The notes under the pieces were generated by a model. That model did not search any database, was not told the DNA's origin, and saw nothing but the letters and a program-made list of their open reading frames with translations. The position numbers and the translations under genes were made by a program. From Eremomyces bilateralis CBS 781.70 (Eukaryota; Ascomycota; Dothideomycetes; Eremomycetales; Eremomycetaceae): 20,696 nt of DNA. The DNA is taken from NCBI RefSeq assembly GCF_010015585.1, contig NW_022985087.1:1-20696 (forward strand), written 5' to 3'. Positions 2,275-18,990 of this stretch are shown piece by piece. Numbering within the stretch: the first letter of the stretch is position 1; each line of letters begins with the position of its first letter.

Positions 2275-2756
2275 CGGGGTCAGAATCAGGCGGTGTCAGC
2301 GAACGGCGAGTGAACGATGCCGAGCGTGTAGTTTCATAACTCGTTAGAATCATATCATACGGGCTAAATCGGGCGGCGATCGCGATGTCGACGAAGGTTG
2401 GGGTGAAGGAACCGAAATCACGTGAAACTCACGTGAATATCATGTGATTTAAGTTTGAGTTGGGAGAAAAGTTGGCCCTCAGGCGTCCACAAAGACCTTA
2501 CGGAACTTCGTTCCTCCAGGCACTTCTACACCATATGCATCCATCATTCATCATTATTCGCATCGATCTCGTCTTGCCACTATACTGTACTGTATAAGTT
2601 GACCAAGGCGACTTCCTCCGTCGCGAGCAGCAGTGTCTCTTATTGCTTCAAACCTCGCCAAGTGCCCGTCGGCGTGAGACGAACCCTTCGTTCTGAATAG
2701 AATTCTTGGTATATAGCGAAATCTGCTGGTCCCTTCCCCGCTTAGCTCCCGGCATC
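2275..2756. other. Spacer and probable promoter of the first HET gene
   Basis: No gene is supported here. The open frame running through 2455-2700 has no homology I recognise and begins with a non-ATG codon. The stretch turns pyrimidine-rich toward the HET start codon (about 2510-2640), and a TATA-like TGTATAAG lies near 2591. Apart from the phased E-box-like sites listed separately, nothing else stands out. Confidence 0.4.
2418..2450. promoter_or_regulatory. Three E-box-like sites phased at 11 bp
   Basis: CACGTG occurs at 2419-2424 and 2430-2435 and CATGTG at 2441-2446. Starts are exactly 11 bp apart, so all three face the same side of the helix. Each sits in an 11-mer of form TCACGTGANNN. 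The block lies about 310-340 bp upstream of the HET gene ATG. CACGTG is the classical core bound by bHLH factors (known). Use in regulating this gene is inference; a decayed micro-tandem repeat is the alternative. Confidence 0.45.
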
Positions 2757-4781
2757 ATGACAAACCGATACCAATACCGAACATTACAACGTTCCAGAGG
2801 TGAAGTCAGACTCCTGAAACTTTTACCGTACGATGGCAACGACAAGCTTAAATTCATTCCCACTTGCAATATCTTCCACGTCAGCCTTCATACGAAACCG
2901 AGGTTTACAGCCTTATCGTACGTCTGGGGAGCTGCTGCCGATTCACGTTTGATACTCCTGGAGAGCTCCCCAGTTCTAGTAACCAAAAACCTATACGATG
3001 CGATGATGGCACTTAGACCTACCAATGAACACATTATAATGTGGATCGATTCCCTTTGCATCAATCAGTTGGATGACGCGGAAAAGAGCTGGCAGGTTAC
3101 ACTTATGGCAGATATCTACCGACAGGCGGAAAAAGTCGTTGCATGGCTTGGTGCAGCAGATGATCAGAGCGATTCCGTGATGGACTACCTGAACTCTTTA
3201 GGAGCACAAGCGGAAGCTTGCGGTATGGACAATGGACCGGAACCCTTTCAAGAAATCTGGCAGAAGCTAGCGTCGAACCTCCCAGGAGCCCGTGACCTAA
3301 ACCGATCAAATGTCATGATGATGACACCAGCTGGCAAAGTACGAACGATTGCATATACTCAGGTGTGCAACCTCTTCTACTCCATCAGTGGCCGGCATGA
3401 TCCATGCAATCCACTACCGCTTGCTGGCATAAAACAGCTCTTTACTCGGCCATGGTGGGGTCGTGTATGGGTTTTACAAGAAATAACTCTTTCAGAGAAT
3501 GCTGAGTTCATTTGTGGGACTAAGAGACTCACACGGCGCAGATGCACTGCTGCTTTTAATGCGTATTGTGCTTTGCGGTTTATTCTCATGGAAAAATTCA
3601 CCCGCGAGCGGCTATCATTGACGCGTAATGAACTCGACATTATTCGACTCTTATTTCAACACCGACCGACCGTCATGCTATCGTCTTGGAATATATATCG
3701 GTATGGCAGATTCCCATTGGCAGCGCTCCTCCGTGCAACATGCGTCGGAAGTATCAATCTGCAGAACCATGGTCCACACCACCTAGAATCAACCGATCCT
3801 CGAGATAAAATTTTCGCTTTGTTGAGTCTGGCGGCAGACCAAGAAGAACTGGCAGATCTGGGTGTGTTCCCGGACTATACAAAATCCTGTAAGGAAATAT
3901 ACACGACGACTATGGCGGCTCTACTTCAACAAGGTCATATATCATTGCTCTCGTGCTGTCAAATGCCCAAATCTCAATCCGGCTTACCATCTTGGGTCCT
4001 AGACTGGTCTCGATCTGTGACAGATATGTTGCAAGACGTGGAAAATGATCATATCGTACTTTACCCGCAGTTTAGCGCTTCTGGAACGGGTCCTTCCGAA
4101 ATTACCATCATCAAGAAAAAGGACGTTATTGAGGGGTTATCAGTGGTAGGCCATATATATGACGAAATACGTGAGGTTGGTCGTTTCCCCGGCAGAACTT
4201 CTAGCCACGAAGTGCCTCTTGAAGAGACGGATTCTTGGCCAGTAAAATGGCTAGTTGAACTACTCCGACTCACATATTACGACAACAAACGCTACACAAC
4301 TTTTAGTGATCGCCTACGTGCAGCAGCCAGCACCTCAATCGGGGGTGTCTGGCATGATCAGAATACACGACTGGCAAGAGTTAGAGATGACTGTTTCTTT
4401 GGGGCGGTAGACCTCTTGCAGAATGGCATCAAGTATATCACGGAACACCAAATCAAACGTAAGGTGTACCAGCTCTTGGCCAACAAAGCTACCCAGCTCG
4501 AGGCCAGGGCCAGTGCGGCGCATGTGAAGCTAGACTCAGAGATTATGGGAAAGAGCTTAGGGCGACTTCCATTCATCACTAGAGAAGGCAACCTGGTCCT
4601 CTCTTCCGAGCATGTCAAGCGTGGCGACTTCATTGCACTAATCAGAGGAGCGCAAGTTCCCTTTGTTCTTCGACGTCAAAGCGGTGAAATTTATCAGCTC
4701 ATTAGCGAAGCGTATGTCGATGGGATTATGGACGGTGAGGTGATAGAGCAGAATAATTGTGGCATCATTAATCTTGTCTAG
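2757..4781 (+). CDS. HET-domain (heterokaryon incompatibility) protein, HET-6-like
   Basis: A 674-aa, single-exon HET-domain protein. HET domains act as cell-death triggers in vegetative incompatibility between unlike fungal individuals (known of the family). Seen: ALSYVWG at residues 52-58, WIDSLCINQ at 96-104, EKSWQVTLMADIYRQAEKV at 109-127, RPWWGRVWVLQEI at 231-243, DPRDKIFALLSLA at 347-359 and PSWVLDWS at 411-418, the usual order in the long HET-6/OR-like group. The C-terminal 250 residues hold no domain I recognise. No signal peptide or membrane segment is apparent. The frame is open from 2706, but that codon is TTG; ATG at 2757 is the first in-frame ATG and sits 51 residues before the conserved ALSYVWG. 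The stop is TAG at 4779-4781. The gene looks intact, in contrast to the transposon remains on both sides. The trigger partner cannot be told from the sequence. Confidence 0.93.
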   Translation: MTNRYQYRTLQRSRGEVRLLKLLPYDGNDKLKFIPTCNIFHVSLHTKPRFTALSYVWGAAADSRLILLESSPVLVTKNLYDAMMALRPTNEHIIMWIDSLCINQLDDAEKSWQVTLMADIYRQAEKVVAWLGAADDQSDSVMDYLNSLGAQAEACGMDNGPEPFQEIWQKLASNLPGARDLNRSNVMMMTPAGKVRTIAYTQVCNLFYSISGRHDPCNPLPLAGIKQLFTRPWWGRVWVLQEITLSENAEFICGTKRLTRRRCTAAFNAYCALRFILMEKFTRERLSLTRNELDIIRLLFQHRPTVMLSSWNIYRYGRFPLAALLRATCVGSINLQNHGPHHLESTDPRDKIFALLSLAADQEELADLGVFPDYTKSCKEIYTTTMAALLQQGHISLLSCCQMPKSQSGLPSWVLDWSRSVTDMLQDVENDHIVLYPQFSASGTGPSEITIIKKKDVIEGLSVVGHIYDEIREVGRFPGRTSSHEVPLEETDSWPVKWLVELLRLTYYDNKRYTTFSDRLRAAASTSIGGVWHDQNTRLARVRDDCFFGAVDLLQNGIKYITEHQIKRKVYQLLANKATQLEARASAAHVKLDSEIMGKSLGRLPFITREGNLVLSSEHVKRGDFIALIRGAQVPFVLRRQSGEIYQLISEAYVDGIMDGEVIEQNNCGIINLV

Positions 4782-5042
4782 TAGCTTTCCGAAACAGATT
4801 AGCTGTGCTGTACTACATACTATATTGTTTAGCGTTTGAAGGAGTATAAAGTGATCTTGTACGCAGTTAGTCAGGTTAACAAGCCCATTCTATGTTACAG
4901 TCGAGTAGCTTGCCCCGATCGTGTTGCAGTGGCACCACTCCGACCTAAGTTCGAGAATTTGATCTATGGTAAACCGTGCAGGGTTCGCGAAAAAAGAGTA
5001 GACGATCTACGGAGTCCAACACAAGACTTTGGATTGATGATA
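4782..5042. other. Short spacer downstream of the HET gene
   Basis: Probably the 3' UTR and terminator of the HET gene. An open frame (4836-5105) runs into the palindrome and begins at a non-ATG codon; I see no coding support for it. Confidence 0.4.
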
Positions 5043-5480
5043 GTTATTAACGTATTCCACAAGCGAGTGGCCCATACAAGCGAGTGGCCCAGCTCATTTT
5101 ACTAGTAAATTCGACAAAATTCGATATCAATATCTCAACAACCACTGGATAATATAGTCTGAAAACCTAGAGTTAGGTTTTCCTAGCCATTTCTAGCTTA
5201 CTATTGAAATATTAAAGCCCTAGCTTTTACAGGTATAGAGATACCTACTTCTTGGCAAGATTTAGAGACCAAATCTCTATATCTTTATAACTATAAAATA
5301 TAAAGCTCTAAGATTCTAATAATAAGCTAGAAATCGATAGGAAAACCTAATTCTAAGTTTTCAGACTATATTACCCAGTGGTTGTTGAGATATTGATATC
5401 GAATTTTGTCGAATTTACTAGTAAAATGAGCTGGGCCACTCGCTTGTATGGGCCACTCGCTTGTGGAATATGTTACTAAC
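5043..5480. mobile_element. 438-bp palindromic foldback / MITE-like element
   Basis: The two halves are reverse complements about a centre at 5261/5262. The outer ~125 bp of each arm (5043-5166 against 5357-5480) are almost identical with no gap. The inner ~85 bp per side still pair but with more mismatches. Each arm carries a 17-bp tandem duplication, ACAAGCGAGTGGCCCAT/G, at 5059-5075 and 5076-5092, mirrored on the right. There is no coding capacity. This is the layout of a nonautonomous DNA element made of terminal inverted repeats with little or no core. I could not define a convincing target-site duplication: TA lies on the left and TT on the right. A transcript across it would form a long hairpin. 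Confidence 0.8.
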
Positions 5481-5783
5481 TTAACCTAAGTAACCTCCCT
5501 CCCTGTGTGGCGGGCATCCCTGCGTGACGGGCAAATTCCTAGGTACTGTGACAGTCTTGGGCTTCGCCCAGTCTGTGTATTGTGGCCTTGCGGCCTAAGG
5601 TAGGAAGGATAGGTAGTGTTATTGTAGGGTGACGGGTTGTGTCTAGATTGATTTTATATACACGAGGCAGATTGACTTATTATACAAATTGGATTTTTGG
5701 TTAGAAATAAGAGAAAAATAGAAAGATGGATAATTTTTGAAAAAAGAAAGATTAAGAGAGTATTAAGAGAGGAAGAAGTTTGA
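5481..5783. other. Non-coding stretch with two GC hairpins, downstream of the LINE fragment
   Basis: No gene. Two compact stem-loops stand close together: TGGGCTTCGCCCA near 5559-5571 and GGCCTTGCGGCC near 5584-5595. Similar TGGCGGGC/TGACGGGC words repeat near 5508-5533. On the minus strand this is the segment following the end of the LINE ORF2 piece, so it may hold that element's 3' tail. Around 5690-5780 it is purine-rich on the plus strand. Confidence 0.4.
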
Positions 5784-6151
5784 TTAGAGGAGGTAGAGGC
5801 GGGTCCTATACCGCGTTAGGAGGATTGAGAGTTGCCCGTCAAGGAAATTCGACCCCGGATAGTTCTTTTGTAGGTCCCGGTAGAACTTCGCCGTTTGTAG
5901 CTGGCAGAGGCCTCCCACGGAGAGGACGACTGGACGAGGGGGACGAAGTCCTTTCCGTAGGCGCGGTACTTCGCAGTCTTTGCCTTAGCCGCCTCGTCGA
6001 GGACCGGGAGGGGCGCCTTGCCCTTAACTGAGCTGGCGTGGACGGACACGACGGTAAGGTCGTAGAAGGTCTCTCCAGGTGGTCCGAGGACGGAGATATC
6101 GTGTGATGGTCCCATAGAGCTCGGCACGGATAGACGGATATCACGGATCAT
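5784..6151 (-). pseudogene. LINE ORF2 C-terminal fragment
   Basis: The minus strand reads DISVLGPPGETFYDLTVVS, KAPLPVLDEAAKAKTAKYRA and DFVPLVQSS, then, after one change of frame, FYRDLQKNYPGSNFLDGQLS and an end at TAA 5784-5786. From memory this is the region after the reverse transcriptase of some non-LTR retrotransposons, where a KxxKY...FxPLVxSS segment precedes a QLSxLLxRYR end. It starts exactly at the border of the Copia LTR, which suggests the LTR element landed in, or recombined with, this LINE. The reverse transcriptase and endonuclease domains are absent from the window. Confidence 0.55.
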
Positions 6152-6416
6152 TGTTATGGTCCCAGGCCTGCGGCCTGTTCCCTTGGTTGTGGCTGAAGAC
6201 GTGGCTGGTGGATTATATCAGAGAAGCAAACTGTTGATCGTTTTGGCGTGTCAATCAATCACGGAAACAATAGGATACCTGTTCAGAGGCAGTGAGATGC
6301 TTGTATTCGATCCGAAGTATATAGTTTACCTTGACGGGTATATATACCCAGGGCTTATGTAATCTTATGTAATCTACAAGGTGCGGTGACTAAGTAATAG
6401 CCGCGGAGTTCCGACA
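6152..6416 (-). repeat. Ty1/Copia long terminal repeat (3' LTR of the fossil)
   Basis: The segment is 265 bp with TG...CA ends. On the minus strand it begins TGTCGGAACTCCGCGG and ends GGACCATAACA. A purine tract (GATCTGGGGGGG on the minus strand) lies just outside it at about 6419-6430, as expected of the polypurine tract beside a 3' LTR. A TATA-like palindrome GGGTATATATACCC lies near 6336-6351. It directly follows the Copia RNase H region on the minus strand. Confidence 0.8.
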
Positions 6417-7220
6417 CACCCCCCCAGATCTAGAAAAGATCTGTATATCACAACCATATCGCGGAGTTATCCTTCTGAATCAGTTACGTTCGTTTCAGTG
6501 ACGGATGTGATCATATCTCGTAGGATTGTAATGAGATGCTGGATAGATCGCATATTCAGGTGCTCGAGGAATTTCCGGTAGTTCTAAGGGGAGAGTATCT
6601 TGGTAAGACCGTCGGCGACCATCTCAGATGTGGAGACCCATTCAACGTTAAGGTCACCAGTCTGGACCTCTTGGCGTAGCCAGAACTGATGGATATCAAC
6701 GTGACGGAGGCGTGAAGTGAGCAAAGGGGTTGGCTTAGAGACAATACCAACTGTCTGCTTATTATCACATTAGATCGTGAGTTCTTGCTCTAGATCAAAT
6801 CTGAGTTAACGGAAGAGACGGTTCATCGCGATTATTTCGCGTGCTGCCCAGGAGAGGGCAAGGAGCTCAGCTTCGGTTGTAGAGGTCGTTACCACTGTCT
6901 GACGGGCGGATTGCCAACGAACGGGGCCGTTGAACAGGTAAATGATGTATCCGTTAGAGGACTTGCGAGTCTCTAGATCATCAGCGAAGGATGCGTCAGA
7001 AGCAGCCTGGACGGGAAGTAAGCTAGCATCTGGAGGAGGTTGTGAAGACCCGGAGTATTCAAGTGCGTGGAATTTCGTCGTCTTTAGGTAGGCGATACAG
7101 CGATCAGCCTCTTCTATATGCCTTGGAGACGGATTGATGTTGTGACGGGAAAGCCTGGATACCGCAAGGGCGATATCAGGGCGTGTGGTCACTGCGGCAT
7201 ATACAAGGGAGTCTAGACCA
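6152..7220 (-). mobile_element. Ty1/Copia retrotransposon fossil, 5'-truncated
   Basis: On the minus strand the segment holds the tail of the reverse transcriptase (YAAVTTRPDIALAVSRLSRH), the RNase H domain (QAASDASFADD, SSNGYIIY, TTSTTEAELLALSWAAREI, then a DNKQTVGI region and RLRHVDIHQFWLR), a polypurine tract and the 3' LTR. These are standard parts and order for Copia pol. Gag, protease, integrase and most of the reverse transcriptase are missing. At 7215-7235 the piece abuts a LINE ORF1-like segment. It is broken, with a few breaks. It looks moderately old: motifs are easily recognised and RIP bias is weaker than in the helicase relic. Age cannot be estimated without a matching 5' LTR. 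Confidence 0.85.
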
Positions 7221-7235
7221 TGCGTCTACTACCCG

Positions 7236-8042
7236 GAGGGGGTCTTCTGCCTAGGGGGCGTTTCTAGTCCTTGCGTCTTCTGTACAGTCCGCTGCGTTAT
7301 GGTTGGGGCCTTGGCACTTGAAGCATTGTCTGCTTCGTGGTATTTCGAAGAACTCTTTAATTCTCACGTATGATCCCTAGATAGAGATCGATCCTTCGTT
7401 AAGTAGTCTATCTTTCTCTGCTTGCGATCTATAGAAGACCACTAACTCGATTCTTAGGTTGGCTGATGGCCGGCTGAGTAGTCGTATACCGCGGATCTGG
7501 GCATCGTTCTCGAAGCAGATGGCCTTAATAATATCTTTATCGATCCGTCGACCTGTCTCTAGGTTGCCTACCGAGAATCTGTCGACTCCTGTTGCTTTGA
7601 CTTTGAAATCCTCGCGGATATTCAATTTTATGTCCTGGAGCGTTAGATCGTTGGCCCACGGTAGTGCTATCTCTATAGTTTCGACTTCCTGTTGTGATCG
7701 AAAGACGAAGCCTATGCTCTCTGGTCGGCGGTTTAGTACGGCGGTGTACTTGTAATTCTTCGTTTCGTCGGTTGCCTGTAGGGTCTTGTTCATTATTTCC
7801 TTAAGCTCCTTATTACCGGCCGAACTATATCGAGAAGCCGAAAGGTTAAGGTTAACCGTCGGTGGCCTATGGTTTTCCCTCCTTATCTGGCCGTTTCCTG
7901 GAGAGGGGATACGTGTCACGACGGGGTCGGAGACGGAACGAAGATCTGGGATGGTGTCTGGTGGTATAATGGCGATCGATGGTAAGAGCATCGTCGGGGA
8001 AGAGGGGGGTAGTGTGATGAAGTGGACTTCCACCATGCACAA
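7236..8042 (-). pseudogene. LINE ORF1-like (gag-like) fragment with CCHC zinc knuckle
   Basis: The minus strand encodes about 220 residues with a basic, proline-rich start, a middle with TVNLNLSASRYSS and KYTAVLNRRPESIGFVFRS, an RIELVVFYRSQAEKDRLLNE segment, and then a CX2CX4HX4C knuckle (CFKCQGPNHNAADC) at 7284-7325. The layout of an RNA-binding-like fold, a short SxxVxY/F-EADR-type motif and a zinc knuckle is that of ORF1 of Tad/I-type fungal LINEs (family knowledge; no search was run). The reading is open from 8042, but the first ATG is at 8036. The fragment is broken and ends at the Copia junction. It may belong to the same LINE as the 5784-6151 piece, since the strand and order agree. 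Confidence 0.6.
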
Positions 8043-8291
8043 GTCACCATATTTGTGTCACGGGACTTACCACTTCATCACCTGTAGACTTTACAACCTC
8101 CTGTTGACGTAGACGTAGATTCTTCCCTCTTCATAGATGAATCTAACTTGTTACGTTACTACCTTGATTTTACATCATCCAGTATCAATCCGTGACAGAT
8201 GACTAAGTAATCAGCTCGGATATCTGACAGAATGAGACCGTGGTGAAATGCCAAGAAATACAGGCATTCTGTGACACTACCCTCTGCATGC
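8043..8291. other. Spacer between retroelement nest and flavin monooxygenase
   Basis: No gene. It contains an LTR-edge-like 30-mer (listed separately), and the right part (8230-8291) is presumably the 3' UTR of the minus-strand flavin monooxygenase. Confidence 0.4.
8200..8229 (-). repeat. Possible second Copia LTR edge
   Basis: The 30 bases match the terminal 30 bases of the 6152-6416 LTR at 23 positions, including an unbroken TGACTAAGTAAT and the final GACA. On the minus strand it would be the first bases of an LTR (TGTCAGATATCCGAGC). A CAACA end about 120 bp further along (near 8104-8108) could close a short LTR, but that is a guess. Confidence 0.35.
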
Positions 8292-9927
8292 CTACAACTT
8301 GGCCTTAATCCACAGCTCTTCTTCCTCTTTCTCTGCTTGCTTTCTGGTCTCTTCCCATGCTTGAATCTTTGGAGCGACCATACCGGCCCATACCTTCAAC
8401 CATTCGTCGTCAAACGGCGCCAGTGCGATGCCATTGGTTCCTGGTACCGGATCTCCAGCTATGTTACGAAGGAATTCAAAGTAGTCGCGATAGTTTGGTG
8501 CAATGGAGTAGTAATTCTTCCCGCCAATAAACTCCGCAACCCGTTTAGTCTCCCACTCTTTCTGTTCTGCGGCTGGCGGGAGTGGCTTCGAGCGGCCTGC
8601 TAAATGACGTGCAACTGCGACAGCTTGCCATTCGTACACGCGGAAAGTAAATCCTCCACCGAGCTATCAGGATAGTCAATTTCAAGATCAGTCGGCAGAA
8701 CGTTGCGGCTGGACTCACCATTCCAACGAACGTAAGAGTTGGATCATCGATATTCCATGTGTGCTGGTAGACGCCGGGAAGTCGACGATATGCTCCCTTA
8801 ATTGTCTTTTGCACTTCGGGTATCCACGGTAGGCTGAAAGTGTAGCCGGTCCCAAAGATGACATGATCGACGTTGTCGACAGATGAGCCGTCTTCGAAGA
8901 AAATCCTTCCGCTTTCGGGATCGAACTGAGTGATTTGTTTCTTGACCACTATATGTGGATGAGTCCAAGGAATGAGTCCAAATGCCGGAATTGGATCGCC
9001 CCGTAGCGCTCCGAGTACTGGATGCTGCGCGTATGGTAAAATTTCATGGATGATTTCCGACGAAGACACGGACGCTCCAACGACAATCACGCGCTGCCAA
9101 CAAATCAGCAATTACCCAGTTTTTAGGAAGCGCCACATACCTTTCCCTTGTAACCTTTGGCATTTCTAAAGTGCTTGCTATGGATTATCCGCCCTGGGAA
9201 TCGCGCGTCGTACTCCAAGAGACCAGGAATCTTCGGAAGCCAAGGCACATTATAATGCCCACTCGCCACGACCAACGCATCGAAGCTCTCTTGCCACCAC
9301 CAATTCTTACCCGGCTCTTCCTTTCGAAGCGTCAGCACCCATTTGTCATCAATCTTCTCTGCCTTCTCCACAGTCGTGTTTAACTCTAGAAGCTTGTCGT
9401 TTCCGTTGCGAACAAAGACATCTTCGACCCACTCGCGAATTAGCTCGCGATCCCGGTACGGCGAATCTCGTCCATATTTCTTGCGAAGATCTGGAGAGAC
9501 TGTTGCTGGGAAGGGATATCTGGTGTAGCTCATGATAGGATCTACGATATTGCTGTGCAAGTTCTCATGGAGCGGCGTATCGGAGAAGCGAAACTGGTGA
9601 CTGTTTACGGCCTCCGATTTTGGAGTCACTGCAGGGAGCTGCGAAGGAATTTGTACTGGCACATCTCCATTTCCGGCGATTAAATCGCTCAACGAAGGAA
9701 TTTTTGCTGGGAGATGTGGTGTATAGACCCTATCTCGTAAGTTAAAAACTTCCGCGTTGTTGTATCTTAGGAGGCCGATGTTCAACTTACCAAACACCTC
9801 CGGGAATCGCCTTTCGTTCGAACACTCGGATAGTATCAAAAGCCTGCTCTTTAACGAGAGCATCCGTGGCAATGGCTCCAGCCGGTCCGGCCCCGATTAC
9901 TGCGACGCTCCTTGCTTTAATAGCCAT
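8292..9927 (-). CDS. Flavin-containing monooxygenase (FMO family), four exons
   Basis: A 490-aa flavoprotein monooxygenase that would use FAD, NADPH and O2 to oxygenate a nitrogen- or sulfur-bearing substrate (family knowledge; substrate unknown). Exons on the minus strand are 9791-9927, 9141-9729, 8719-9093 and 8292-8663. The introns of 61, 47 and 55 nt all have GT-AG ends (GTAAGT, GTATGT, GTGAGT), and the frame holds across all of them. Seen: FAD site IGAGPAG at residues 11-17 with FERKAIPGGVW after it, FMO fingerprint FPGRIIHSKHF at 223-233 (FxGxxxHxxxF), NADPH site VVGASVS about 246-252, GTGY at 323-326 and, in exon 4, LGGGFTFRVYEWQAVAVAR. The start context is CACCATGGC, close to ideal. 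The C-terminus is charged, with no membrane anchor, so it is probably soluble. The gene looks intact. It is divergent from the SAC gene across about 840 bp. Confidence 0.92.
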
Positions 9928-10767: not shown

Positions 10768-13725
10768 ATGCCGGACATAGTGCGCCGCATGCTGGTCCTC
10801 GCCGCCATCGACGGCCTGGTCCTCCAACCCGTCCCGCCGAGGAACCAGAAACCCGCCACCGAGCAGGCCATCACGGTCGGCTACAAGACGAATGCGATCC
10901 AGGCACTGCAGCATGATCGGCGCGAGGAAGCGAAGCCGCCGCCGTCGTTTGAAGCGCATGGGGTGGTTGGTACGTCAAGCGGGATACATTCCCTAAACAG
11001 CGTCGATATGCGCTGACTCTGCGTTCCAGGCCTGCTCAAGTTCGCCAGCTCCTCGTTTCTGGTCTTGATCTCCGCACGGGACCAAGTCGCCCAAATCCAC
11101 GGAATCCCCATCTTCACCCTCACCGACGTCGCCATCATCCCCCTCTCCTCTCAACGCGACGCGGAGACGGCGATCGCGCACATCCGCGCGACGCAGCAAC
11201 AGACCGCGGCAGGCGAGGATGCGGAGGATTCGGCGTCGGAGACGGAGTCGATTCTGAGCGAGGACTCGATACCGACGCCGGAGCGAGAGGCGAAAGGGAG
11301 TTCGACTACGAGCGAGGTGGTGGAGGATGTGTTTGGGCGGAAGGGGATGTATGGGCGGTTTGCGCAGCGGTGGTTTTCGCGGAGGAATTGGCGGGGTGAG
11401 CCGGAAGTTGCGGCGGAGAGGAGGGACGAGATGGAGTTGGAGGAGTTGAGGAAGAGGGAGGCGAGGGGGGAGGCTGGTGAAGAGGGCCTTGAGACACCAC
11501 TGGACTCGACGGCTGTAGAGGATGTAAACCAAGACGAGACTCCCGAGCCGGTGAAGGTGGACGATGACATGCCCGAGCCGTTGCTGCCCAAGGTTTTGAG
11601 GGTTGCGAAATTGCTGTTCACGTCGAGGAGTTTCTACTTCTCGTATGACTACGACTTGTCAAGAACGGTGACGGAGCAAGAGAAAGAAGCGGATTCGGTG
11701 CCGTTAAGTCAAAGATTCAATTCATTGGTAAGAGCTCGTCCGATCTATGATACGCGGAATCTAATTCTAGAAGTACTTCTGGAACCGTCATATTACGGAT
11801 CCTTTCATGGAAGCCGGCCAGCATAGCTTTGCCCTACCTCTTCTACAAGGATTCGTTGGGCAGCGCGAGTTCGAGGTGGAAGTATCACCGACTAGCAAGG
11901 AGGGGGCGATTATCAGTGCATCTAAACCGGAAGAGGATGATGAAGAGACGATAGAGAGCGCCGAGTCTTCCGGCGATCCCCGGCAGAGCCGTAAGCAGTA
12001 TCTCTTAACCTTAGTCTCCCGCCGATCCGTCAAACGAGCCGGACTGCGATATCTACGCCGCGGTGTCGACGAGGAAGGGAACGCGGCCAACAGCGTCGAG
12101 ACCGAGCAGATCTTCTCATCCTGCGACTGGGACGACCACGACACGAAGATACATTCCTTTGTCCAGTACCGAGGCAGCATCCCGCTCTTCTTCTCGCAAC
12201 CCCATACAGCTTCAAGCCGATCCCCGCATTCTTCGGATCGCCGGAGACCAACCGGGCGGCGTTCCAGCTTCATTTCTCGTCGTTGATTGAGCGGTATGGC
12301 AAGATTCAGGCGGTGTCGTTGGTGGATAAGAAGGCGACCGAGCGGAAGATCGGACAGGAGTTTGAAAATCATGCGAACGAGGTTGTCGATAGCGGAGTGT
12401 TGGGAGAGGGAAAGTTTGGTTTTCTATGGTTCGACTTCCATCATGTCTGTCGAGGGATGAAGTTCGAAAATGTCTCGATCTTGCTCGACAGCATTTCTTC
12501 TTTCCTGACATCCGCTGCCTGGTCGATTCAAGAAGGGGATCGCCTCGTGCAGAGGCAGTCTGGCGTCATCCGGACAAATTGCATGGACTGCCTGGACCGC
12601 ACGAATGTTGTACAATCCGCATGTGGTCGAGATGTCCTCGAGAAACAACTCGCCACATGTAATGTCTTGATTAACCTCCAGACCGATCCCACCACGTCAT
12701 GGTTCAACACACTCTGGGCTGACAACCGCGATGCGATATCTGCACAGTATGCAGGCACAGCTACGCTCAAGGGCGACTACACGCGGACAAGAAAGCGGAA
12801 TATCAGTGGTGCTCTGAACGACTTCCGGCTTACTTTGAATCGGTACTACAACAACATCGTAAACGACTACCTCGCACAGGCGGTCATTGACTACCTTCTC
12901 GGCCGCGCATCCGCCCAGGTCTTCGCGGACTTCGAGGCCGAGATGATGTCTCAAGACTACGCGGTGGATTTGAAGAAAATGAGACAAGGCGCTATCGACA
13001 ACTGCCTCCAGATCGCCGTCGAAGATGCGCGGGAAGAGTTCATTGCGGGCTATGCTCTGACGTCGCTGCGCAGGGCGTCAACCCTGAAAACGCTGCCGTT
13101 CGAAGAATGCGTGCTGCTCTTGACGGGAAGCGCGCTGTACCTGTGTCGCTTCGACTGGAACACCGAAAAGCTGCGTGAATTCGAGCGGGTCGAGCTAGAG
13201 GACATCATTGACATCACCCGCGGAGTGTACATCACGTCGACGTTAGCGCCGAAGCATTTAGACGAGACGAAGAACATCGGCATTGTCCTCCGATATGTCA
13301 GCAAAGGGCCACGAATGGTGCGGACGAATACCAGGAGCCTTGGAAACAAGCAGAAAGAAGGCGAGACGACTCCCGACGAAGGGGAGGACGATACGGTTGC
13401 GAACCAGCCGACGTCTCAGGAGACCAAGTTCTGGGCGCTGAAAGCCGGCCAACCGGTCTCGACTTTAAAGAGCATACACAGCAGCGCCACCGCGCTGAAT
13501 GAGCGGGAGGTTCTCGACCTCATATGTCAAGATGTAAAGCAAGCAGTCGATCTTCATCGCCAGCCGACATCCGAGATAGAAGGGGAACCTGGTGGAAAGG
13601 AAGCATGGCGGAGGGAGCCGCTCACAGTGGAGGAGGGCGACATTATTTCTGTTGCGGAAGCGAAGAAGAGCACGGGATTGATTGAACAGATGACATATAA
13701 CCTGAAGCGGCTGGTCTGGACATAG
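10768..13725 (+). CDS. SAC-domain phosphoinositide phosphatase with hSac2 domain
   Basis: A phosphatase that would remove phosphate from phosphoinositides at membranes (SAC family; the hSac2 domain points to the INPP5F/Sac2-like branch). Exons are 10768-10969, 11030-11727 and 11771-13725; introns of 60 and 43 nt are GT-AG, with a CTGAC branch site in the first. About 951 aa. Seen: [13 protein letters not shown] near the N-terminus, [17 protein letters not shown] at about 91-107, an acidic Ser/Glu-rich insert at about 126-255, [10 protein letters not shown] at 270-279, [12 protein letters not shown] opening exon 3, the catalytic CX5RT motif CMDCLDRT at about 571-578, and an hSac2 region at about 690-810 ([16 protein letters not shown]). 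Start: ATG 10768 gives the conserved N-terminus; in-frame ATG 10666 would add 34 unconserved residues. Oddity: between [10 protein letters not shown] and [12 protein letters not shown] the frame slips by one base at a C4 run (12200-12203), as if one base were missing. It is a recent lesion or a sequencing error; the downstream frame stays open for 480 codons. Confidence 0.9.
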
Positions 13726-13993: not shown

Positions 13994-16900
13994 TTACTGC
14001 CGCCTACTATGATTCTTTTCGTGCCTCTTCCGATCATTGTCCCTTGTAAAAGCCTTCCCACACTCTGTACATTCAAACGGTTTCTCTCCATTATGGCTCC
14101 TAATATGGCTCATCTTGTGAAAGTTCCGCGAAAAGCTTTTCCCGCAAATGTGGCAAACGTGCTTAGAAGACTCTATCACCTTCTTCGGTGTGAGTTTAAA
14201 TAATGCTGACAAGTCGCTCTTATCGGGGTGGTAGTCTCTCATGTGTTTTTCGAGCTCATAGTTAGAGGAAAACCCGAAGCTGATGGAGGTACAGTGCGGA
14301 ACATGGCAGACCCAGGGTCGGTTATGTCTGTCAATGTGCTTATCTCGCGTTTTAGCACTATCAAAGCCTTCGTAGAAATCAGGGCAGGTAACAAACGAGC
14401 ACTTAAAGCGCTTGTGGCCGTAATAGCCCACGAGGGCTCCTTTGGTGGCAGAATTCCTCGAGGATTCCATGGAGAACTTCTTAATGAGCTCCCGGTTCCG
14501 TCCGAATGCTTTCTTGAGCGATTGGAGGCATATTTCGTTGCGGAAGTTTGGTCCTTTCTCTATGTGTCTCGTAACATGGCTTATAATGCGAGTTATATCC
14601 TCGTAAACCTCATGGCTAGCAAGCTTATTGTAGTCGTCTCTCACATCGTCATGGACTGGCTCGTCCGATATATCATCTGCGTAGCGGTCCAGAAAACGAA
14701 ACATGGATCCATAGAGTGAATTCAGAGCTGCCAAGCTGTCTTCGACCTTAAAGCCTTCTTCGTTGTAGATTTTTGCCAAGGCGGCTAGATGTTGAAACCA
14801 TTTGGATACGACGTAGTCTTGCAGAGACAACCATCCATCCAGAGTGTACTGATTGATCTTTGTCTTCTCCAGATCGGGATCGAAAAGGTCCATGGTTAGG
14901 TATCTTAAGCAAAGTGATGCCAATTTACATTCGACATCCGGTTTGCTAATATATTGCGTCTTGGTCAAGTATCTAGCGTGGGTCAGCAAGTGCAGTTATG
15001 GTTTGGGTGGAAAGATCCATACATTCGTGCTGTGCCATGGACCAGCTCCAGTCTCTCTCCAGGAAGCTCACGCACTAATGTCCCGCAAAGCTCTGTTACT
15101 TTCGCGACCAGTCCTCTACTTTCAACGTCATGGAGCGTTTCGTTACTGTCGGTCAACTCCAAGCAAAAGGCACACTGAATCTCGTAGTGTTTAAGTGGCC
15201 GTTTGGCACAAATCATCCACCCCAGAAGATGAGTGATCTAATTCCAAGCTCCTTCTATACCTTTCCATTGTCTCTCAAGACGACCGAGGATCTTTGCATA
15301 CCTGAAGCGTCGTTAGTGATTCACTCCGACAGGACATGCCTATCGGCGGCTTGATTACACTCACGCTGCAGCAATGCCATCTGGAAAACGATGCTCATCA
15401 AGCTCTGTAACCACGTCGTTTTTGTTTGTTTGATTGAATAAATTTTCCAAGACCAGCTTCGCGTATAGGAACATTCCTGTACTCATGTAAGCTGATGAAC
15501 TGACAGAATGTTGGCCATACCATTCGTTCTCGAAGACGTAAGTCTTTCGATGCATTTCACTTCATCGAAGCTAAGTCGAAATTTCCGCCCAATTTGATCG
15601 GTCCACATCCCTACAAAGTCCTCAATCTCTTTTATATTATCCTTCGGGCGTATAGCGAACTGTCCTACAGAAAAATTCGGTCGGGCGCGGGACTCCTTAC
15701 TCAACGTTTCAGCAATATCTGCTTCGTCCTGGCTGACGATCAGCACGCGGAGTTTCCCAGGTTCATCGTCTTCTGCCTCGTCGACAACTTCGGCCAAGAA
15801 AGAGAGCAAAATCCGCCTTTCCTCCTTAGGACACTCGTCCAAGCCGTCAATGATGATAAACTGATTAAGAATTCGCTTGCAGGAAATCTTGATCAAGTTT
15901 TGGGCAAGTTGATGGGCTATTAACGTGACTTGTCCGCTCGATCTCGCCTTCATGAAGAAGTGAGGAATCATGGTTGGTTCTTGTGTGACCAATTGAACCA
16001 AGAGGCCCTGGAGAATGGAAAGAGCATCGCTCTTCTGCGTATCAGACTCCTTGCAGTAGAAGTATGAAGTTTTGAACCCTTTCTTTCTTTCGCACTCTTC
16101 GATGATTCTAGACGCGAGAATTGTTTTCCCTAAATTAGCAGGTTAGCAGCGTGTTTGATTCGGTACAACGCACTCACCCGCTCCAGGTATTCCGTTCAAC
16201 CAGAGTACCGGGTATCTTGGTGTCTCATCATCCATCCAGCTAGCCATCATTTCGTTCTGTATTATCCAGTCCCCACTGCCTGGATTACATTTTCTCACAT
16301 TGCAGAAGAACTCATGGTCGGCGACATGTTCCTGGGCAGTCTTATCCTCTCCTTCTGTCGGCCGCAAACAGGCCAACCATTCTATTACGCGCCAGTATTT
16401 CTTGTCTTTCTCTTCTTTCTCCTTGCTATCTAGTTCTACACGGAGTTTACCCCGCTTCAAGGCATATGTGTTGAGCTTCTCCATAATGGAGTAGATGTCG
16501 ACGGAGCTAGAAGTAACCGTGTACCGCGCAAGCGACTCAACCAGGTCCTTCTGGCGCTGGAAATTGACTAAAATGCCCTGGAAACGTGTGTCAAAGTTGC
16601 CCCAGTTTGCCTTGAAAACCTGTTTCCATCCGCGGTGACGGAAAAACTGCTGTGCTTTGATGTGAAATTCGAGTAAGTCAGCATACACCCAGCCTATAAT
16701 GCGCTGCATGAGCGGGTACTGGGTAAAGACTTTTTCATTTGCAGATAGGAAAGTCAGCTTTTCGCCAATGTCTTCATATGCACTTAGTAATGCATCAAAA
16801 GTTTCTGCGAAATGACTAGCTGCCTGTGGTATTGCTTAGTGATGTTCACGCCGGAGGACTGGGGCAAAAGCTTTTCGTCTGGCGTTACTTACGTGCAACA

Positions 16901-17934
16901 TGAACTTCATCGGACCCAATATATATGCAGCGTAGCTATCCTTGGGAAATCGTGCGCTGGATATTTTGACAATGGTGCTCATTCCCTGTAGGAAGTTGTT
17001 CAGCCGGGAGCAGTTTATTAGTGATTTCTTTCTTTCCTGGTCGCGCTGTAGGTTAAAGACTGCCCTCCTGACATCTTCGACCCGGGTTTCATGGAACTCA
17101 TTTCGTTCCTCGGCGGTAAGCAATGTCGTGAACTCATTCCATGCGTCCTGGAACATTTTCTCTATCCCATGAGATTCGTCACGGATACCGGGGAAGGCGG
17201 GTGGCCTAAAATTCCGCCTGATATCTTCTTTTAACCGTTGGTGCGCCTTGAGAAGCCCTTCACCGTAATTCATCACGAAGGAGACGTCGAATATGCCTAT
17301 TAGCGAGTAGGCCATGTCTTCTTCTCGCTTGGTTTTACGAGAACTGGCCCACTGAAACTTTTCGTCGTTGGTAAACTGAGATCGATCTTGGCCTTGTAAA
17401 GCTGTGACTGGGATCTTCGTTATGTCATGGATAAGCCCTTCTAGGGAGTGTTTGTCGCCGAGGTAGGTGCCTTCAGAGGAGAAGAACCGCACTACCTTTG
17501 GAGCGATAAGCTCCTGAAGAGTCCAGCCTCTGGTAAACCATCTGCTTGCCCGGAATGCCTGCTCCCACTCACATTGTAGACCATCGGCACCGACCGCTAA
17601 AACATCCGATAGATATACATAACATAACTCGGCGTTCTGGTACCAGCGAAACATGGAAGTGATGGCCTCTGTAACCTCACTTGAATCCTCCTTCTTAATA
17701 CAGCATCTATCGACCCAAGAGGAATTCTAGGTTATCAACTGCCGCTTTGTTTGCACAAAATTCAATCTTCTTGTATCCAAGCCTTCCCTTTCCAGAGCTC
17801 TCTGTGACGTCTTTGAAATTGACTTCATCTTCGTCTTCACCCCATGTGTGTGAAAGAATTGCATAAGGGGGTATTTTACCAGGTGTGAACGAGTGGAGGC
17901 TGACTTTGTTATGTCTGAAGTCAAGAAGCCGCAT
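13994..17934 (-). CDS. NLR-like gene: HET - NACHT - four C2H2 fingers, with two lesions
   Basis: STAND/NLR-type non-self receptor gene. Exons on the minus strand: 16893-17934, 16178-16823, 15521-16129, 15365-15476, 15023-15301 and 13994-14972. Introns of 69, 48, 44, 63 and 50 nt are GT-AG, and phases agree at every junction, giving about 1221 codons. HET: ILSHTWG 26-32, WVDRCCI 73-79, GWTLQELIAP 136-145, EEDMAYSLIGIFDVSF 204-219. NACHT: Walker A GIPGAGKT 558-565 (split by intron 2), Walker B FIIIDGLDE 653-661. Four zinc fingers at about 1087-1112, 1118-1144, 1169-1189 and 1197-1217; the last two are canonical CX2CX12HX3H joined by a GEKPF-type linker. Start: ATG 17934 (MRLLD), usual for HET-NACHT proteins; the frame opens earlier only at a TTG. 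Odd: an extra base in AA at 17717-17718 shifts frame before WVDRCC, and TAG at 15238-15240 (codon 824) falls between NACHT and fingers. Recent pseudogene, null allele or sequence errors. Ligand and target are unknown. Confidence 0.82.
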
Positions 17935-18143: not shown

Positions 18144-18259
18144 ACTGCAATTTTAGCGCCAGAGGACTCTTTGAAGCAAGGCTTACGAGACCGAAAGTGT
18201 GTAGTAAGCAAGCTACCTATTTACTGGATCAAAGAGTCCTCGGACGCTAAAATTGCAGT
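18144..18259. repeat. 116-bp hairpin element with 31-bp inverted ends
   Basis: The ends 18144-18174 and 18229-18259 are reverse complements at 29 of 31 positions (ACTGCAATTTTAGCG, then a CC/TC difference, then GAGGACTCTTTGA). They enclose a 54-bp loop without coding capacity. It resembles a very small MITE. No clear target-site duplication is visible. Confidence 0.75.
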
Positions 18260-18660: not shown

Positions 18661-18706
18661 CTCCTCATTGTTATCACAATGGCCCCTCTACATCGTCCCA
18701 ACCCCC

Positions 18707-18990
18707 ACCGCCCATTCTAGGCACCTCCACCACCTATTTTAGGCACTCCCCCCCACCGACTTTAGAACCCCATCATCACCCATTTTAAGCACCCTCTATC
18801 ATCCATTTTGGGGTACTCCCACCACCCGTTCTATCACCTGTGCCCAAAACGGGAGGCGGGAGTGATAAACGGTATCCAAAATAGGTGATAGTAGGGCCCA
18901 AAATAGGTGGTGGAGGTGCCCAAAACAGGTGATGGGGGATGCCCAGAATATGTTGTAGGGGTGCCCAGAATAGGTGGTAGGGGTGCCCAC
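18707..18990. repeat. Minisatellite arranged as an inverted repeat
   Basis: About six degenerate units of 21-26 bp in one orientation (18707-18840; core ACCACCTATTTTAGGCACTCC) are followed at once by about six in the opposite orientation (18841-18990; core TGCCCARAATAGGTGGTAGG). The switch point is at 18840/18841. The right arm is the reverse complement of the left, so either strand can fold into one long imperfect hairpin. There is no coding signal. Confidence 0.8.

What the first reader, a model, noticed from the sequence alone, without database searches (positions are those of the whole stretch)
13994..17934. NLR-like gene with HET trigger, NACHT switch and C-terminal C2H2 zinc fingers
Six exons join in phase into HET (ILSHTWG, GWTLQELIAP), NACHT (Walker A GIPGAGKT split by an intron, Walker B FIIIDGLDE) and four C2H2 fingers, two of them canonical with a GEKPF-type linker. 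Fungal NLRs are known for C-terminal WD40, ankyrin or TPR repeats as ligand sensors. Zinc fingers in that place suggest a receptor that senses nucleic acid or a protein partner, or one that acts in the nucleus. Architecture is seen in the sequence; the sensor role is inference. I recall other fungal NACHT proteins with C2H2 tails but cannot say how common the full HET-NACHT-C2H2 order is.
Basis: partly seen in the sequence, partly recalled or inferred. Interest (0 to 1): 0.78.

Follow-up and report, generated by a model that had tools for sequence, protein, structure and literature searches.

The report
Broken fungal NLR with zinc-finger tail

Summary
"Join in phase" is wrong. A frame break lies inside HET (17722-17717), with 4 nt between the two matching halves, so no intron fits. 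An in-frame TAG (15240-15238) precedes the winged-helix match and all four fingers. It may be a recently decayed allele or a sequence error: the adjacent Sac phosphatase gene also has a frame break, while a flavin monooxygenase and a second HET gene are open. C2H2 fingers in fungal NLRs are in print: 34 Sordariales NLRs and a proposed sensor role for zinc fingers (PMC12258605), and a decoy idea in 2017 (PMC5658179). I saw no HET-NACHT-C2H2 described, but that paper's tables were not open to me and no fungal sequence collection could be searched. Verdict: a new, interrupted member of a known kind.

The parts
17707..17934 (-). first HET part in the ATG frame (75 aa, own stop at 17709-17707), holding ILSHTWG; its HET-like part ends at 17722
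   Evidence: (F codon 17724-17722); no Pfam match on its own
17715..17724 (-). frame break inside HET: F codon 17724-17722 and W codon 17717-17715 in different frames, 4 nt between
   Evidence: HET profile positions; candidate introns
16893..17726 (-). rest of exon 1: HET remainder (RGWTLQELIAP), start of the HET-NACHT linker and of the DUF7708 match
   Evidence: HET 6.7e-7 on the 754-aa piece, best stretch profile 51-88
16824..16892 (-). intron 1, 69 nt
16178..16823 (-). exon 2: most of DUF7708, linker, start of NPHP3_N/NACHT to GIPGAG
   Evidence: DUF7708 1e-10 (aa 245-378 of the 754-aa piece); 2.9e-11
16130..16177 (-). intron 2, 48 nt, inside the P-loop
15521..16129 (-). exon 3: NACHT core, KT of Walker A, Walker B IIIDGLDE
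   Evidence: NPHP3_N 9.5e-36, NACHT 1.6e-8
15477..15520 (-). intron 3, 44 nt
15365..15476 (-). exon 4
15302..15364 (-). intron 4, 63 nt
15023..15301 (-). exon 5: most of the winged-helix match, with the in-frame TAG
   Evidence: GPIID_WHD 1.8e-9 on the piece after the TAG, aa 4-79, profile 16-83 of 90
15238..15240 (-). in-frame TAG, the only stop in the spliced frame from 17726 to 13997
14973..15022 (-). intron 5, 50 nt
13994..14972 (-). exon 6: end of the winged helix, a stretch without Pfam match, four C2H2 fingers, TAA
   Evidence: zf-C2H2 7.1e-7
14228..14401 (-). fingers 1 and 2, C-x4-C-x15-H-x3-H and C-x4-C-x15-H-x4-H
14009..14155 (-). fingers 3 and 4, C-x2-C-x12-H-x3-H, linker NGEKPF

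Best explanation
This is a fungal STAND/NLR gene with the order HET - DUF7708 - NACHT - winged helix - unassigned stretch - four C2H2 fingers, interrupted in this sequence by a frame break in HET and by a TAG before the winged-helix match. In intact form it would most likely work as HET-NACHT receptors are thought to: the tail holds the NACHT ATPase off until it meets its cue, nucleotide exchange drives assembly, and the clustered TIR-like HET domains start cell death (inferred from what the papers say of HET-E and of HET/TIR). The fingers stand where WD40, ankyrin or TPR repeats usually stand and would be the sensor, binding nucleic acid or, as an integrated decoy, a protein partner (inferred). 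As sequenced, translation from 17934 ends after 75 residues, so no full receptor can be made. On the state of the gene I put about 0.48 on real decay, 0.40 on sequence errors, the rest on splicing or two genes. Shown here: domains, intron ends, the two breaks. Inferred: switch mechanism, sensing role, present function.
For: Domain matches on pieces kept apart and on stretches with X at the breaks. Five introns with GT...AG ends and open runs of 754 and 397 codons round one TAG; about 54 stops would be expected in 1152 codons at 3 in 64 (my arithmetic). HET is cut in the middle with 4 nt between its halves, and the winged-helix match begins at profile position 16 four residues after the TAG, in the middle of exon 5, so the parts belong to one gene. 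No WD40, ankyrin or TPR match in the 397-aa tail at E up to 1. C2H2 fingers in fungal NLRs are published.
Against: The sequence as given cannot make the protein. Bridging the TAG with an X did not extend the winged-helix match upstream: it still began at profile position 16, so continuity there rests on the missing first 15 positions and on exon 5, not on a match across the TAG. No relatives were found (none of these collections is of fungi), so neither the intact architecture nor conservation of the fingers was tested. Structure models were unusable (mean pLDDT 37.1 and 42.9). Nothing here shows what the fingers bind.
Confidence: 0.75

Rival explanations
1. The gene is intact in the living fungus and the breaks are errors of sequencing or assembly.
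For: The adjacent Sac phosphatase gene has a frame break with no intron room near 12,200, at a run of four C (12200-12203): Syja_N profile 106-227 in one frame, 226-305 in the next, with [12 protein letters not shown] shared with yeast SAC1. The five NLR introns and both long frames are otherwise clean.
Against: The flavin monooxygenase gene (490 codons over four exons) and the second HET gene (2757-4781; full HET profile) show no break. The TAG is not an indel.
Confidence: 0.4
2. The gene is a real recent pseudogene or a non-functional allele of an NLR.
For: Two lesions of different kinds in one gene. The PLoS Genet survey says that it removed NLR candidates with frameshifts and premature stops (passage), so such cases occur in other fungi, by decay or by error.
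Against: Few lesions for a decayed gene; the Sac break points to a shared technical cause.
Confidence: 0.48
3. Splicing bypasses the breaks. For the TAG, the intron 4 donor at 15364 joined to the CAG ending at 15146 (219 nt) keeps frame and fingers.
For: In-frame choices exist for both breaks.
Against: That 219-nt choice removes 52 residues of exon 5, the core of the winged-helix match. At the HET break the 31 candidates use seven donors (GTCAGC, GTTCAC, GTGAAG, GTCAAT, GTCACA, GTGCAA, GTTGAT), none like GTRAGT, and each removes 46 nt or more of HET.
Confidence: 0.08
4. Two separate genes: a HET-NACHT protein ending at the TAG and a zinc-finger protein downstream.
For: The TAG separates them and ATG codons follow it in frame.
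Against: The TAG lies inside exon 5, and the downstream piece begins within the winged-helix profile, at position 16 of 90. The HET break also ends the upstream frame after 75 aa.
Confidence: 0.04

Closest known systems
Sordariales NLRs with zinc fingers (PMC12258605, PLoS Genet 2025; passages and section 14 seen)
   Same: 34 NLRs with C2H2 fingers; 52 of 57 zinc-finger NLRs of all types have them C-terminal; the 16 fingers that lie next to canonical repeats are all of treble-clef type; one NLR shown with the motif three times; authors propose a sensor role
   Different: The text read gives neither the N-terminal partner nor the switch type of the 34, nor how many of those 34 are C-terminal; the present gene has HET plus DUF7708 and is interrupted as sequenced
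HET-NACHT-WD40 (HNWD: HET-E, HET-D, HET-R) of Podospora anserina
   Same: N-terminal HET, NACHT switch (passages of PMC12881547 and PMC9815663)
   Different: No WD40 match here; C2H2 fingers instead; DUF7708 between HET and NACHT
Podospora anserina NLR with a C-terminal zinc-finger DNA-binding domain (personal observation in PMC5658179, passage)
   Same: Zinc finger in the C-terminal region of an NLR, raised as a possible decoy
   Different: No sequence, finger type or N-terminal domain given in the passage
Fungal NLRs with two consecutive N-terminal effector domains (PMC10197012, passage)
   Same: Two domains before the switch
   Different: DUF7708 has no described activity that I found and may be no effector

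Membership tests
Fungal NACHT NLR (STAND) | NACHT-type NTPase with Walker A and B | tested here: met
   NPHP3_N 9.5e-36, NACHT 1.6e-8; GIPGAGKT and IIIDGLDE
Fungal NACHT NLR (STAND) | winged helix after the NTPase | tested here: met
   GPIID_WHD 1.8e-9, on the piece after the TAG, profile 16-83 of 90
Fungal NACHT NLR (STAND) | N-terminal effector domain | tested here: met
   HET 6.7e-7 on the 754-aa piece, 9.9e-12 with X at the break; the 75-aa start alone 0 families
Fungal NACHT NLR (STAND) | one open reading frame through all parts | tested here: not met
   frame break 17722-17717 and TAG 15240-15238
HET-NACHT-WD40 (HNWD) | C-terminal WD40 repeats | tested here: not met
   no WD40 match in the 397-aa tail at E up to 1
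NLRs with C-terminal C2H2 fingers | C2H2 fingers at the C-terminus, no canonical repeats | tested here: met
   zf-C2H2 7.1e-7, no WD40/ankyrin/TPR match; four fingers
NLRs with C-terminal C2H2 fingers | common descent of this tail with the published 34 | not testable with these tools
C2H2 DNA-binding proteins | binds DNA | not testable with these tools
   fingers 3 and 4 keep canonical spacing and a TGEKP-like linker and match zinc-finger proteins of solved structure; binding untested

The most novel reading that the evidence does not exclude
A five-part receptor (HET, DUF7708, NACHT, winged helix, four fingers) in which a DNA- or RNA-reading zinc-finger tail directly gates a TIR-like death domain, intact in the living fungus and distinct in its HET pairing from the published zinc-finger NLRs: a fungal sensor of foreign or misplaced nucleic acid.
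Probability: 0.08. Interest if true: 0.65.

Novelty: new member of a known kind. Interest (0 to 1): 0.27.

Why it matters
If intact relatives exist, the gene joins a cell-death trigger to a DNA-binding type of tail in one receptor, which would make it testable whether fungi sense nucleic acid through NLRs. As it stands it mainly adds one interrupted example to a published class, and shows that a gene model read by eye can step over a frame break and a stop.

Tried and rejected
Relatives: the search for related loci with the open frame of the finger exon and of the NACHT exon gave 249, 29, 5 and 90 pattern matches and 0 relatives in viral contigs (13, 26) and genome contigs (25, 47); tblastn of the NACHT exon frame against plasmids gave no match. 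These are collections of viruses, prokaryotes and plasmids, so the absence means little. The window's own genome is not held.

Structures: single-sequence models of the open frames of exon 6 and exon 2 (each with a few codons of neighbouring intron) had mean pLDDT 37.1 and 42.9; no fold search was made with them. A PDB sequence search of the 754-aa piece gave 3 weak P-loop matches, best E 0.027.

RIP as the cause of the TAG: the dinucleotide composite is -0.48 over the gene, against +0.37 over 4800-6400. One site cannot be tested.

Micro-intron at the HET break: the 13-nt GT...AG stretch 17739-17727 (seen by eye; the scan began at 30 nt) is far below the 44-69 nt of this gene's introns; rejected.

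Papers: 8 of 10 searches used; (DUF7708) returned 0 papers. 13 papers were opened, as passages only except section 14 of PMC12258605. Other listed papers were seen as listings only. The words zinc and C2H2 occur 0 times in the main text of PMC4986451 and PMC9815663. PMC11412873, PMC5371717, PMC3778014, PMC4234444, PMC3218866, PMC8914235 and PMC4779268 passages do not describe NACHT with C2H2 in one protein; PMC3218866 lists proteins with WD40, NACHT and HET, and an ankyrin/CCHC-finger/PNP family.

Full report
What the sequence holds. On the minus strand a gene model runs from ATG 17934 to TAA 13996-13994. The second intron splits the P-loop as GIPGAG|KT. Pfam on pieces kept apart finds the second part of HET (6.7e-7), DUF7708 (1e-10), NPHP3_N (9.5e-36), NACHT (1.6e-8), GPIID_WHD (1.8e-9) and zf-C2H2 (7.1e-7). 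The 75-aa first piece alone gave 0 families. Joined to the second piece with one X at the break, HET scores 9.9e-12, residues 24-111 on profile positions 1-88.

The two breaks. The start of HET (ILSHTWG...DNLEF) and its continuation (SWVDRCC...) are in different frames: the F codon is 17724-17722 and the W codon 17717-17715, so 4 nt lie between them. The W is profile position 51 when the second piece is searched by itself. There is no room for an intron. In the ATG frame translation ends after 75 residues. The second break is an in-frame TAG at 15240-15238 in exon 5. From 17726 the spliced frame is open for 754 codons before it and 397 after it; about 54 stops would be expected in 1152 codons at 3 in 64, so this is plainly the frame of a gene. 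The GPIID_WHD match begins four residues after the TAG, at profile position 16 of 90. Bridging the TAG with an X did not extend that match upstream (again from position 16). I still read the TAG as cutting one gene, because it lies inside an exon between two good introns and the piece after it begins within a domain. So 'six exons join in phase' is not correct for this sequence.

Could splicing save it? A script listed GT-AG introns of 30-200 nt that would restore the frame at the HET break (31, all printed) and of 30-250 nt that would remove the TAG in frame (50, of which the 20 starting within exon 5 were printed; the shortest of those is 147 nt). At the HET break the donors are unlike GTRAGT and each choice removes 46 nt or more of HET. 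For the TAG, the intron 4 donor joined to the CAG ending at 15146 keeps frame but removes 52 residues around the winged helix. I give this a low probability; RNA would decide.

Error or decay? Other genes of the window serve as a yardstick. The flavin monooxygenase gene (9927-8292) reads as 490 open codons through three introns of 61, 47 and 55 nt (FMO-like 5.3e-5 and 4.3e-11 on two of its pieces; a third piece gave no FMO match). A second HET gene is open (frame 2697-4781, first ATG 2757; HET 7.8e-29 over the full profile). But the adjacent Sac-type phosphatase gene (about 11.0-13.7 kb) is broken near 12,200, at a run of four C (12200-12203): Syja_N is matched at 106-227 in one frame and 226-305 in the next, overlapping in the DNA, with [12 protein letters not shown] shared with yeast SAC1. 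A gene of this conserved kind broken in this way suggests consensus errors, which weakens the pseudogene reading of the HET break, 5.5 kb away. The TAG is a different kind of lesion. I cannot decide between the two. The gene is not RIP-like in composition.

The fingers. Exon 6 ends in four C2H2 fingers: C-x4-C-x15-H-x3-H, C-x4-C-x15-H-x4-H, and two canonical C-x2-C-x12-H-x3-H joined by NGEKPF. In the 60 rows shown of 101 PDB sequences matched at 1e-6, the best stretch lies on fingers 3 and 4; many of these (Zif268, PRDM9, CTCF) are DNA binders (recalled). C2H2 fingers can also bind RNA or protein (recalled), so the ligand is open. No WD40, ankyrin or TPR match appeared in the tail at E up to 1.

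How it would work. By analogy with HET-E, in which WD40 repeats sense a variant host protein and the HET domain starts cell death (passage of PMC9815663; HET as a TIR relative in passages of PMC12881547 and PMC10197012), the tail would restrain the NACHT switch until it meets its cue, and clustered HET domains would trigger death. DUF7708 may be a second signalling part or an assembly module; no paper in the library names it. All of this is inference.

What is known. Section 14 of PMC12258605, read in full, reports zinc fingers in 57 Sordariales NLRs, 52 of them C-terminal, and C2H2 fingers in 34; a passage of its discussion proposes that zinc-finger and SPRY domains act as sensors and may be further canonical C-terminal domains. 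A passage of PMC5658179 mentioned in 2017 a Podospora NLR with a C-terminal zinc-finger DNA-binding domain as a possible decoy. So zinc-finger tails on fungal NLRs are not new. Whether HET is ever the N-terminal partner of C2H2 was not stated in what I read, and supplementary tables were not open to me. Eight searches and 13 opened papers showed no HET-NACHT-C2H2 protein; several listed papers were not opened, so this is a limited negative.

Verdict. Observation partly confirmed, interpretation partly supported, a new but interrupted member of a known kind. Interest 0.27.

Noticed in passing
11017-13725 (+), break near 12200: Sac-type phosphoinositide phosphatase gene with [12 protein letters not shown] kept but a frame break at a run of four C; a sequence error or a broken conserved gene.
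   Followed up: partly
2697-4781 (+): A second, open HET-domain gene (first ATG 2757; HET 7.8e-29), so two HET genes lie within about 15 kb.
   Followed up: partly
5042-5243 and 5280-5481: 202-nt inverted repeat, 91% complementary, 36 nt apart: perhaps a foldback or MITE-type element, in a stretch with RIP-like composition (4800-6400, composite +0.37).
   Followed up: no
18144-18174 and 18229-18259: 31-nt inverted repeat, 94% complementary, 54 nt apart, 210 nt upstream of the NLR ATG; perhaps a small element in the promoter region.
   Followed up: no
18701-18989: Minisatellite-like arrays of about 22-nt units on either side of a 145-nt spacer, partly inverted copies of each other.
   Followed up: no
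6387-8229: A 30-nt direct repeat (77%) at 6387 and 8200 brackets a stretch with a frame that by eye resembles the end of a copia-type polyprotein (6806-7225, minus); no Pfam match at E up to 0.1.
   Followed up: no
8292-9927 (-): Flavin monooxygenase-like gene, four exons, 490 open codons.
   Followed up: yes
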